A stretch of DNA of 64,000 nt. Origin: Halobacterium rubrum. Its GTDB lineage: Archaea > Halobacteriota > Halobacteria > Halobacteriales > Halobacteriaceae. The stretch lies in contig NZ_JAJQQZ010000001.1 of assembly GCF_021729015.1 (NCBI RefSeq), positions 434,001-498,000 of the forward strand, read 5' to 3'. Position 1 is the stretch's first letter. Each line of letters begins with the position of its first letter. Position numbers and translations under genes: made by a program. Of the stretch, positions 46,324-47,833 are shown piece after piece. The notes beneath the pieces were generated by a model. The model was given only the letters and a program-made list of their open reading frames with translations. It searched no databases and had not been told where the DNA came from.

Positions 46324-46518
46324 ATGGTCGACGCGCGCACGAAGTCGACGGCGCTCTGGGGGGTCGTCGGCGCGCTGGCGTTCCTCGTGCTCGCACAGGG
46401 CTACCTCCTGATAGCGGGCCAGCGCGTCGCCTACAGCGCCCTGTTCGGCGTCGCAGCCGTCGTCTTCGCCGCCGCCGCAGCCACCTCCCACGTCGCCGCC
46501 GGCCGCCTCGGCGGCTGA
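46324..46518 (+). CDS. Small two-helix membrane protein
   Basis: Protein of 64 residues with two hydrophobic helices (about 12-30 and 36-54) and a short positive tail, 12 bp after ridA and probably co-transcribed. It has no recognised family. It ends 46 bp before tRNA-Ser. Confidence 0.65.
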   Translation: MVDARTKSTALWGVVGALAFLVLAQGYLLIAGQRVAYSALFGVAAVVFAAAAATSHVAAGRLGG

Positions 46519-46564
46519 ACGGAAAAGAAGGGTTTAAACGCGCGACCCCGGTACGAACGACTGG

Positions 46565-46646
46565 GCCGGGATGGCCGAATGGCAAAGCGCACGCCTGGAA
46601 AGCGTGTCCCCTTACGGGGTTCAGGGTTCAAATCCCTGTCCCGGCG
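46565..46646 (+). tRNA. tRNA-Ser (GGA anticodon)
   Basis: Class II tRNA, 82 nt. Acceptor stem GCCGGGA/TCCCGGC, discriminator G at 46646. Anticodon arm CACGC-CTGGAAA-GCGTG with anticodon GGA at 46597-46599. The long variable arm (TCCCC TTAC GGGG) is as for serine tRNAs, and the T-loop is TTCAAAT. No encoded CCA and no intron. Confidence 0.95.
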
Positions 46647-46664
46647 TTCTCCCCGTACTCGCGC

Positions 46665-46692
46665 CGCACAGCGACGGTGCTGTCGCTGTGCG
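46665..46692 (+). terminator. 11-bp hairpin just downstream of tRNA-Ser
   Basis: Arms 46665-46675 (CGCACAGCGAC) and 46682-46692 (GTCGCTGTGCG) pair perfectly around the loop GGTGCT, 19 nt after the tRNA. No T-run follows directly, so it is not a classic archaeal terminator; it may act in 3' processing or be part of the rearranged region. Confidence 0.45.
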
Positions 46693-46710
46693 CGCGATGC
46701 TTGCGTAAAC

Positions 46711-46730
46711 GACGACGGGATTTGAACCAC
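46711..46730 (-). repeat. Inverted tRNA T-arm-like fragment
   Basis: Read on the minus strand this is GTGGTTCAAATCCCGTCGTC: a T-loop with GTTCAAATC and the start of an acceptor-like stem. It is in the opposite orientation to tRNA-Ser and lacks the rest of a tRNA. Confidence 0.5.
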
Positions 46731-46760
46731 GGCAGACCGAACGCAGTGAGGGCTGGCATC

Positions 46761-46784
46761 GGGTTCAAATCCCTGTCCCGGCGT
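46761..46784 (+). repeat. Displaced copy of the tRNA-Ser 3' end
   Basis: The 24 nt from the T-arm through the acceptor 3' strand, GGGTTCAAATCCCTGTCCCG plus GCGT, match 46624-46647 exactly, 137 bp downstream of the real tRNA end. This looks like an attachment-site duplication (att) from integration at a tRNA gene, with only ~113 bp between copies and no integrase. Confidence 0.65.
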
Positions 46785-46907
46785 AGCTTTTTCCTGCGCT
46801 CACTCGACGGCTTCGGCGCCTCGTTCGCTGGCAAAAAGCTACGCCAAAAAGCCGTCCTCACCCCCGTCCGGGGGTTCGTCGGCCAGCGCGCTTCGCGCGC
46901 TGTGAAT
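46780..46907. repeat. Structured intergenic element, copy A
   Basis: Perfect 13-bp inverted repeat GGCGTAGCTTTTT (46780-46792) and AAAAAGCTACGCC (46833-46845) around a 40-nt loop. Then ACCCCC-GTCC-GGGGGT (46860-46875) and AGCGCGC-TTC-GCGCGCT (46885-46901), followed by GTGAAT. The core 46826-46883 matches copy B (60278-60333) at about 50 of 58 positions by hand alignment. No protein-coding potential is apparent. It begins in the displaced tRNA end. Confidence 0.6.
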
Positions 46908-46981
46908 GCTCCGAGTTCGTTCTCACGTTCGAGCGGCTCGTCTCGTCGCGCTGGTGTTCGCGAACTCGGCGAGCCGCCGGC
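46908..46981. other. Gene-free remainder of the 46647-46981 spacer
   Basis: GC-rich and hairpin-prone (CGAGTTCG / CGAACTCG arms at about 46912-46919 and 46959-46966), with no reading frame or promoter that stands out. It ends at the stop of the convergent lipoprotein gene. Confidence 0.4.
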
Positions 46982-47833
46982 CTACCACTCGACGTAGGTG
47001 ATGTACGCGGTGTCCTCGTACTCGACCAGCCACGTGCCGTAGGCGTCCGTGGTGTCGATTCCCTCGTGGTCGCGGATGCGGTCGACGACCGACCGGAAGG
47101 CGTCGCTCTCCTCGAAGTAGCCGCCGTCGATGGCCGCCTCGACGACGTCGCGTTCGGCCTCGGAGAGCTCCGACAGTTCGAACTGGTAGCGGTCCCGCAC
47201 GCTGTCGGCGAACGTCTCCACGTCGGAGGAGACTTCGGTCAGTTCGTACCGGTACTCGGTCTCGGTCGTGGTCCGGGACTCGACCGTGACCCGGTACTGG
47301 CTGTCCTGGTGGGTCACGACGTCGTACTGGGGTTCGGTGACGAACACCGACTCGTTGCCGACTTCTTCGGCGGTGCCGTACCGGACGCCGAGCTCCTCGC
47401 GGCTCGAGTCGGCGTTCTCGTCGGTGACGACCGGTTCGAGGTGCTCGCGGTCCACCTCGGGCAGGTCGGCGTACGCGACCTCGCCGACCGACGGCGTCGA
47501 GTCCTCCGGGTTCGTCTCGACCACCACGTCGTAGACGGTCACCTCGTCGCTCTCGAGTTCCGTCGAGGCGACCTCGTAGAACGCGCCGTCGAAACGCACG
47601 GTCCCGGACCGGTCGAACAACTCGGTCCGGCTGCGTCGCGTGGCGGTGCCGTTCTCCAGTGCCGCCTCGACGACCGCAGACTCCGTCGAACCGCCGTCGA
47701 CAGGCGTCGACACCTCGTCGGCGACGTCGTCGGCCGTCGCCTCGTCCATGTCGAGGACGACGGTCGGGTGGGCGCAACCGGCGAGGAAGGGGAGGAGGGC
47801 AACTCCGCTCGCGAGGAACTGGCGGCGTCGCAT
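46982..47833 (-). CDS. Tat-exported lipoprotein of unknown function
   Basis: Protein of 283 residues with a twin-arginine, lipobox-type signal (MRRRQFLASG, then LAGC), so it is exported folded and lipid-anchored outside the membrane. The mature part is acidic, with beta-strand-rich regions, and shows no recognised catalytic motif. Paralogous-like shadow starts six codons above are ignored. Convergent with tRNA-Ser. Confidence 0.75.
   Translation of the reverse strand: MRRRQFLASGVALLPFLAGCAHPTVVLDMDEATADDVADEVSTPVDGGSTESAVVEAALENGTATRRSRTELFDRSGTVRFDGAFYEVASTELESDEVTVYDVVVETNPEDSTPSVGEVAYADLPEVDREHLEPVVTDENADSSREELGVRYGTAEEVGNESVFVTEPQYDVVTHQDSQYRVTVESRTTTETEYRYELTEVSSDVETFADSVRDRYQFELSELSEAERDVVEAAIDGGYFEESDAFRSVVDRIRDHEGIDTTDAYGTWLVEYEDTAYITYVEW

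What the first reader, a model, noticed from the sequence alone, without database searches (positions are those of the whole stretch)
46565..46784. tRNA-Ser(GGA) with a displaced copy of its 3' end and an inverted T-arm fragment
Seen: 24 nt of the tRNA 3' half (46624-46647) recur exactly at 46761-46784. Between them lie an 11-bp hairpin and a T-arm-like fragment in the opposite orientation (46711-46730). Known: integrases of the tyrosine family often target tRNA 3' ends and leave such direct repeats. The ~113-bp interval has no integrase, so this looks like a scar or a very small element. The structured repeat (copy A) starts inside the displaced end.
Basis: partly seen in the sequence, partly recalled or inferred. 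Interest (0 to 1): 0.55.

Follow-up and report, generated by a model that had tools for sequence, protein, structure and literature searches.

The report
tRNA-end hairpin cassettes of haloarchaea
Behind about half of the tRNA genes of this salt-loving archaeon, and in nearly all of the relatives examined, sit tiny non-coding DNA units that copy the end of the tRNA gene they follow and fold into a hairpin matched to it; they look like mobile cassettes that slot into tRNA genes, by a mechanism still to be proven.

Summary
A 137-bp unit (46627-46763) follows tRNA-Ser(GGA): a GC hairpin (H1), an inverted T-arm, a variable core, then a second copy of the tRNA 3' end. Inverted and direct arms make a second hairpin (H2).

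In this genome 22 of 42 tRNA genes carry the arrangement (1 of 420 shuffled controls). Both arms match the tRNA they follow better than other tRNAs (0 of 20,000 permutations). The inner stem covaries, also without selection by fold. A covariance model finds H2 in 192 of 194 Halobacteria genomes and, in a phylum sample, in 25 of 26 close genomes and none of the other 131. Tail copies form arrays. Two close relatives differ by one unit at tRNA-Met and tRNA-Leu(CAA).

Best reading: non-coding micro-cassettes that enter tRNA genes by site-specific recombination at the 5' edge of the T loop, with H2 as the recombination site, like an integron attC site with the tRNA as attI. No recombinase was identified; folding as DNA is inferred. 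An RNA-level role is the main rival.

The parts
46565..46646 (+). tRNA-Ser(GGA) gene, the target of the unit
   Evidence: ARAGORN; Rfam RF00005 56 bits
46627..46647 (+). tail copy T0: from TTC of the T loop to one base past the tRNA 3' end; inferred start of the unit
   Evidence: exact repeat of 46764-46784; over 212 copies identity with the own tRNA falls from 0.99 at -1 to 0.30 at -3 relative to TTC
46627..46763 (+). inferred unit (137 bp): tail, trailer, H1, inverted arm, core, ending in G just before the next TTC
   Evidence: repeat spacing 137; boundaries as
46662..46694 (+). GC hairpin H1, 11-bp stem, just after the tRNA; possibly trailer or terminator (inferred)
   Evidence: fold, z -4.0; GC hairpins at the same place in other units, seen by eye
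46717..46728 (+). inverted T-arm (R'' arm) of hairpin H2
   Evidence: 12-nt exact inverted repeat
46717..46773 (+). hairpin H2: R'' arm, core, R' arm; candidate recombination site
   Evidence: R1 match 50.6 bits, E 1.8e-10 (this copy was itself one of the 47 sequences of the model); fold; covariation of the family
46729..46761 (+). variable core with inner (L) stem and CGAACGCAGTGAG-like loop; two of the five modelled inner pairs are not standard in this copy
   Evidence: a near-identical core follows tRNA-Glu of G008
46764..46784 (+). tail copy T1: displaced copy of the tRNA 3' end
   Evidence: Ser-gga row

Best explanation
The feature is one non-coding micro-cassette of a family spread through Halobacteria. 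A unit runs from the TTC of the T loop, through the tRNA 3' end, a short trailer and hairpin H1, to hairpin H2, and ends in G before the next TTC. Inserting it leaves the tRNA whole, because the unit carries the same 3' end, and pushes the former 3' end downstream. Shown: anatomy, tRNA-matched arms, covarying hairpin, position behind tRNA genes, arrays, presence/absence at orthologous loci. Inferred: units move as discrete pieces by site-specific recombination at the 5' edge of the T loop, catalysed in trans by a tyrosine recombinase that reads H2 as a folded strand, as integron integrases read attC. The T-arm pair would be the R box, the inner stem the L box, the asymmetric internal loop the spacer and the variable tip the terminal structure. 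The recombinase is unknown. H1 probably supplies a new trailer or terminator.
For: 22 of 42 own tRNA genes have the module against 1 of 420 shuffles. In 21 modules the inverted arm matches the own tRNA (212 identities; permutation mean 183, maximum 200, 0 of 20,000), and so does the tail (428; mean 286, maximum 337, 0 of 20,000). Over 234 copies identity with the own tRNA is 0.97-1.00 along the T arm and falls at the tRNA 3' end; on the left it falls from 0.99 at -1 to 0.30 at -3 over 212 copies. The inverted arm is complementary for only about 10 nt and then drops to chance (218 arms; the first 9 positions are partly selected); a recombinase half-site has about that size (recalled). Inner stem: covariation score 0.367 against shuffled 0.159 (0 of 500) and at most 0.106 when slid (47 sequences chosen after a fold filter); without a fold filter, 81 non-redundant cores of 189 modules pair best in the 2x3 geometry, 249 of 405 cells, null maximum over geometries 163, 0 of 300. 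The internal loop is n x n+1 (2x3, 1x2, 0x1, 3x4) in 123 of 189 modules. 169 tRNAs have 244 tail copies, up to 5 each. Clean extra units in G005 relative to G011: 199 bp at tRNA-Met and 90 bp at tRNA-Leu(CAA); leaving the Met unit out gives 128/136 identity over tRNA + 60 nt, and 164/226 against 122/226 over tRNA + 150 nt, ungapped. Three tandem units with such a hairpin follow a protein gene ending GTTCGACGAGGCGTAA, each ending in a (partly diverged) copy of the gene end with a stop codon (L317), which a tRNA-processing role would not predict.
Against: No recombinase was found. The SNJ2-like family Y has no match at E<=1e-15 in R1-rich genomes G035, G109, G088 and G129; family X is present in G024 and G133, which have no R1 match; IntI reached its cut-off in 0 of 194 genomes. 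Loss of a unit could be ordinary deletion between direct repeats; a related unit at Leu(CAA) of the window genome suggests loss in G011, so of the two clean cases only Met may be a gain. Cores are shared between different tRNAs, yet crossover at the T loop alone would give a tRNA a wrong acceptor strand, so arm matching in a new tRNA needs a further step such as palindrome correction or tail conversion. Strand tests are weak: the sense strand is the more stable in 120 of 189 modules with RNA parameters (67 the other way) and 107 (81) with DNA parameters, while G:T pairs are more frequent in the bottom strand. Whether the inverted arm fits the preceding or the following tail: 21 to 7 with 13 ties among 41 informative cases, confounded by decay of older copies.
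Confidence: 0.58

Rival explanations
1. RNA-level element: the pre-tRNA transcript runs on through H1 and H2, and the H2 hairpin (with the T-arm copy as a decoy that occupies the anti-T-arm) guides trailer processing, termination or tRNA quality control.
For: The hairpin covaries and lies downstream of a tRNA on its strand in 81 of 85 hits of four genomes (76, five more once tRNAs missed by Rfam were seen); sense-strand folding is slightly more stable; arm mismatches in loci L001-L038 and L192-L234 are G:T 20, C:A 11, other 28 of 408.
Against: 20 of 42 tRNA genes of this genome lack it, and of 38 orthologous tRNA pairs of G005 and G011 none has a full tail copy in both, although the hairpin with a truncated tail stands at tRNA-Ser(GGA) of both. 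It occurs behind a protein gene. The acceptor strand is copied as well, which a hairpin does not need. Inverted arms fit the preceding tail at least as well as the following one in 34 of 41 informative cases.
Confidence: 0.2
2. Plain remnant: attL/attR-like ends of larger tRNA-integrated viruses or plasmids after loss of their genes.
For: Archaeal viruses and plasmids do integrate at tRNA 3' ends, SNJ2 among them (passages of PMC8371274). At L313 a larger insert with an integrase-like ORF (judged by eye) sits between tRNA-Gln and such a unit.
Against: Units have a common anatomy with a covarying core, and 150 of 189 modules start within 150 nt of the tRNA (search limited to 500 nt). Searched at 80% identity up to 15 kb downstream, tail copies of 39 of the 42 own tRNAs lie only within 400 nt (three tRNAs not placed, two near contig ends). 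The L313 insert ends in a copy of the acceptor end rather than of the T loop (by eye). Among 18 IMG/VR contigs with the palindrome, 17 seen by eye, none looked haloarchaeal; their taxonomy was not given.
Confidence: 0.12
3. Replication-born palindromes: tandem duplication of tRNA ends plus fold-back or template-switch synthesis makes and corrects the inverted arm, without any recombinase.
For: Arms track the target; tandem duplicates of whole units at tRNA-Arg(GCG) of G000 and tRNA-Glu(TTC) of G008; template switching would explain matched arms in a new tRNA. Analogous layouts with unrelated cores stand behind tRNAs of three non-haloarchaeal contigs (L116, L131, L133).
Against: Shared core sequences and a T.T mismatch in 28 of 29 modules of the commonest fold across tRNAs and genera suggest common descent or spread. 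The inverted arm stops after about 10 nt. The inner stem covaries.
Confidence: 0.1

Closest known systems
Integron gene cassettes and attC sites
   Same: Discrete units in arrays; ends ..AAC / GTT..; imperfect hairpin with outer stem, unpaired spacer, inner stem, asymmetric bases and variable tip (attC features from passages of PMC2727003); crossover inferred next to GTT
   Different: No integron integrase above cut-off; many tRNA genes instead of one attI; no gene seen in the units examined; outer stem copied from the tRNA; the extra base is on the L'-R' side, while attC has it on the R''-L'' arm
tRNA-integrated elements of archaea with tyrosine recombinases (SNJ2, HF2-like, provirus scars)
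   Same: Direct repeat of the tRNA 3' end; tRNA restored
   Different: 137 bp here, 90 and 199 bp in the two clean cases, and no integrase; unit starts at the T loop, while SNJ2 att is 13 bp at the amino-acid attachment end (passages of PMC8371274); hairpin part of the unit
Transposase-free repeats of Haloquadratum (MITEs, SMRs, PATEs)
   Same: Short, non-coding, palindromic, numerous
   Different: SMR-As target PATEs and IS605-type elements and cause no target duplication (passages of PMC3119063); here the target is the tRNA end and the arms are target-specific
CTX phage attP (recalled, from no call)
   Same: A folded single strand makes the recombination site
   Different: Phage genome with Xer recombination at dif, not tRNA genes

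Membership tests
Integron cassette | integron integrase IntI in the genome | tested here: not met
   TIGR02249: 0 of 194 Halobacteria above the curated cut-off (118 have weaker matches, as other tyrosine recombinases give); the 14 control genomes also gave none above it, so the call holds no positive control
Integron cassette | attC-like folded site with AAC/GTT ends, spacer and inner stem | tested here: met
   structure and covariation; attC features from passages of PMC2727003; resemblance in anatomy only, folding as DNA not tested in the cell
Integron cassette | tandem arrays of units | tested here: met
   54 of 169 tRNAs with a tail copy have two or more, up to 5 (some copies have no recognised inverted arm)
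Integron cassette | single attI beside intI | tested here: not met
   targets are many tRNA genes
Integron cassette | cassettes carry genes | tested here: inconclusive
   none seen, but modules were sought within 500 nt of tRNAs and longer distances only for own tRNAs and eight far hits
Autonomous tRNA-integrated element | own integrase | tested here: not met
   137-bp unit without a plausible gene
Autonomous tRNA-integrated element | direct repeat of the tRNA 3' end flanking the insert | tested here: met
MITE | constant terminal inverted repeats related to a transposase's | tested here: not met
   inverted arms vary with the target tRNA; relation to a transposase not searched
Known RNA family (Rfam 15) | match at the gathering score apart from the tRNA | tested here: not met
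   only RF00005 at gathering in the window; at E<=1 in 46500-47000 only the tRNA stretch itself is hit
Site-specific recombination cassette of any kind | excised circle or recombinase-dependent movement | not testable with these tools
   needs experiment

The most novel reading that the evidence does not exclude
Haloarchaea run an integron-like system without an integron integrase: an unidentified recombinase moves folded cassettes of roughly 50-200 nt in and out of many tRNA genes, each class of cassette addressed by an arm that copies the T arm of its tRNA, so that tRNA 3' flanks are continually rewritten without damage to the tRNA.
Probability: 0.35. Interest if true: 0.9.

Novelty: new variant of a known kind. 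Interest (0 to 1): 0.72.

Why it matters
If right, a structured mobile unit sits behind a few to about half of the tRNA genes of a haloarchaeal genome (R1 hits behind 19 of 43, 16 of 40, 2 of 43 and 20 of 52 tRNA genes in the four genomes), and it was not found described in the searches made (open-licence papers only). It would be a natural case of hairpin-directed recombination outside integrons with many addressable targets per genome, and would help to explain why tRNA 3' flanks are so variable (identity 0.66 or less in 21 of 38 orthologous flanks of two close relatives). It makes an open matter directly testable: whether folded-strand recombination works at tRNA genes in archaea.

Tried and rejected
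Integrase search: family Y (SNJ2-like by its features as recalled; own copy G000:C2:436536) occurs in 181 of 194 genomes but not, at E<=1e-15, in several R1-rich ones, so it was dropped as the required recombinase. Family X (53-91% identical in six of the seven genomes compared; only 4 of the 10 own-genome hits were among the sequences compared, so its presence in G000 was not shown) occurs also in the two R1-negative genomes and does not discriminate. Strand preference by folding energy and wobble counts: inconclusive. IMG/VR scan for the palindrome: 18 contigs; several resemble Bifidobacterium tRNA palindromes. Literature: the searches named above gave no description; listings only, except passages of PMC8371274, PMC3119063, PMC2727003 and PMC9668308.

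Faulty or partial steps: one search gave nothing through a script bug and was repeated; one search read one strand only and was replaced; one search was an empty script; the output was cut, and its count was redone; one search stopped with an error after the tRNA-Met case, so the Leu(CAA) length comes from the alignment. Before the permutation one of the 22 modules (Val-TAC, degraded direct arm) was dropped and the inverted arm of His-GTG was placed by hand. In one search coordinates were pasted by hand, 43 of the 44 tRNA rows of G006. The 47 sequences of A1 came from 108 of 189 modules that passed a length and fold filter, so one search is partly selected for inner pairing; one search repeats the test without it. 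Many loci were fetched because they hold the element, so the fractions are not prevalences. L040 (next to tRNA-Asn) was not resolved.

Full report
Observation. The tRNA-Ser(GGA) gene ends at 46646. Its last 23 bases and the next base form a 24-nt exact repeat at 46761-46784. A 12-nt exact inverted copy of the T arm lies at 46717-46728. A GC hairpin, here called H1, lies at about 46662-46694. Inverted and direct arms form a second hairpin, H2, at 46717-46773.

It is not unique. The pattern GGATTTGAAC..GTTCAAATCC with a spacer of up to about 75 nt occurs at 20 places in 10 of 13 genomes of the genus, its reversed control at none. The 16 loci examined all have a tRNA gene upstream on the same strand, 33-490 nt away. 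In 12 the copied T arm is that of this tRNA (in L039 and L042 the acceptor part is not); the other four stand near tRNA-Asn, and in L045, L046 and L052 the unit belongs to a tRNA-Met call between; L040 was not resolved. The genus is most likely Halobacterium, since named contigs of Halobacterium sp. CBA1126 (L087, L114) carry the same elements as G009. Of the 18 others, three (L116 Woesearchaeota, L131 Clostridiales, L133 Pacearchaeota) show an analogous layout with a copy of the tRNA's own end and an unrelated core. The layout is thus not confined to Halobacteria, although the modelled core is, as far as tested.

Own genome. Of 42 distinct tRNA genes, 22 have an inverted plus direct arm within 330 nt downstream at a score of at least 19 of 24, against 1 of 420 shuffled sequences. 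In 21 of these (one dropped, one arm placed by hand) the inverted arm fits its own tRNA better than permuted tRNAs (212 against mean 183, maximum 200) and the tail does so too (428 against mean 286, maximum 337); 0 of 20,000 permutations reach either value. tRNAs with unusual T arms carry correspondingly unusual units, for example Gly(CCC), Val(CAC) and Met.

Edges of the unit. Over 234 copies, identity with the own tRNA is 0.97-1.00 along the T arm, 0.87-0.95 along the acceptor strand, and falls at the tRNA 3' end. On the left side it is 0.99 at -1, 0.81 at -2 and 0.30 at -3 relative to TTC over 212 copies; in the one case where the tRNA does not have G at -1 (Thr-GGT) the copy has G. The exchange point therefore most likely lies at or just right of G|TTC, the 5' edge of the T loop. 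The inverted arm is complementary for about 10 nt and not beyond.

Structure. In 189 modules the usual fold is an outer stem of about 12 bp, an internal loop with one more base on the right (2x3 in 67, 1x2 in 29, 0x1 in 17, 3x4 in 10; other sizes or no such loop in the remaining 66) and an inner stem; in 29 modules of the commonest type a T.T mismatch follows in 28. On 47 distinct sequences 89.4% of cells pair, the covariation score is 0.367 against 0.159 for shuffles (0 of 500) and at most 0.106 when slid, and all five inner pairs show two-sided changes. These 47 had passed a fold filter. Without it, 81 non-redundant cores pair at 249 of 405 inner cells in the 2x3 geometry, against a null maximum over 30 geometries of 139 on average and 163 at most (0 of 300), and the five best geometries are all n x n+1. 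In the window copy two of the five modelled inner pairs are not standard.

Distribution. In a phylum sample of 157, 25 of the 26 genomes shown as of the same order or closer match; of the other 131, none does (19 are listed as same phylum, 112 are not listed). In four genomes (G000, G008, G006, Haloferax marinum G199), 77 of 85 non-redundant hits at E<=1e-3 lie within 700 nt downstream of a tRNA, 76 on the same strand. Of the eight others, five lie behind tRNA genes that the Rfam search had missed (Pro, Gln, two Trp, Met), one lies 2.1 kb from tRNA-Gln behind a larger insert, one is degenerate at 1.1 kb from tRNA-Thr, and one (L317) follows a protein gene.

Turnover. The orthologous tRNA-Ser locus of the 13 genomes was compared by eye: same core in L009-L011, L015 and L017, another core in L012, L013, L018 and L021, a degenerate copy in L014, none recognised in L016, L019 and L020. 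In the close pair G005/G011, 12 of 38 orthologous tRNA pairs differ in the number of tail copies and none has a full copy in both (with a lower threshold G005 gains three more; at tRNA-Ser(GGA) both have the hairpin with a truncated tail). Upstream flanks are 0.90 or more similar in 32 of 38 pairs, yet downstream identity is 0.66 or less in 21. Two downstream flanks can be aligned across a unit: at tRNA-Met and tRNA-Leu(CAA) G005 holds exactly one additional unit. For Met (199 bp) identity with G011 is 128/136 over tRNA + 60 nt once the unit is left out, and 164/226 against 122/226 over tRNA + 150 nt, without gaps. Up to five tail copies follow one tRNA.

Mechanism. Shown: unit anatomy, target-specific arms, covarying hairpin, tRNA position, arrays, presence/absence. 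Inferred: site-specific exchange at G|TTC with H2 as the recombinase's site. This gives one account of why the tRNA stays intact, why the old 3' end is displaced, why units stack, and why an arm pair of about one recombinase half-site is kept complementary. The L317 array speaks for it: there the tails have diverged, and the inverted arms of units 2 and 3 agree with the preceding tail better than with the following one, as expected if the unit's own pair forms in an excised circle (sequence, compared by eye). The general test, 21 to 7 with 13 ties, points the same way but is confounded. Difficulties: no recombinase is tied to the units; deletion between direct repeats explains losses without any enzyme; cores shared between tRNAs require a step that adapts the arms.

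Comparison. The anatomy resembles integron attC sites (passages of PMC2727003), but the integrase, the single attI and gene cargo are missing or unseen, so it is not filed as an integron. Integrons reported in archaea concern 75 metagenome-assembled genomes of nine phyla; no word beginning with Halobacteri or haloarchaea occurs in the main text of that paper (passages of PMC9668308). SNJ2 integration uses a 13-bp site at the amino-acid attachment end (passages of PMC8371274). Transposase-free repeats of Haloquadratum behave differently (passages of PMC3119063).

Verdict. A real, recurrent, structured and probably mobile unit, whose mechanism is not proven. Interest 0.72; new variant of a known kind.

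Noticed in passing
   Followed up: no
L317 around 1521-1750 (G008:C1:460820-461050): Three tandem units behind a protein-coding gene (enolase-superfamily-like, judged by eye), each ending in a copy of the gene end with a stop codon.
   Followed up: partly
L116, L131, L133: Woesearchaeota, Clostridiales and Pacearchaeota contigs have an inverted T-arm and a copy of the tRNA's own end 30-48 nt behind a tRNA, with cores unlike the haloarchaeal one.
   Followed up: partly
L321, L318, L319 (G008): Displaced copies at Val, Trp and Met have an extra C in the T loop (TTCACAAT or TTCACAAAT) although the tRNAs and most inverted arms do not.
   Followed up: no
L015; tRNA-Ala(GGC), Gly(TCC) and Arg(CCT) of G000 (L199, L200, L212): Another palindromic insert (partly ..GACCCTCGCGAACGC..GCGTTCGCTCA-like) interrupts some displaced tails or follows the tRNA.
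   Followed up: no
L059, L061, L063, L065, L066, L070, L072, L097, L099: Two Bifidobacterium genome contigs and several IMG/VR contigs that resemble them carry a longer palindrome of a tRNA 3' half around a short loop, apparently in both orientations: a different case that may reflect prophage attachment sites.
   Followed up: no
G024, G133: The only two of 194 Halobacteria without a match to R1 at E<=0.001; both still have tyrosine recombinase family X.
   Followed up: partly
G005 and G011, 38 tRNA pairs: Downstream flanks have identity 0.66 or less in 21 of 38 pairs, although upstream flanks are 0.90 or more similar in 32 of 38.
   Followed up: partly
L313 (Haloferax marinum): A 2.1-kb stretch with an integrase-like ORF lies between tRNA-Gln(TTG) and its unit, ending in an acceptor-end copy.
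   Followed up: partly
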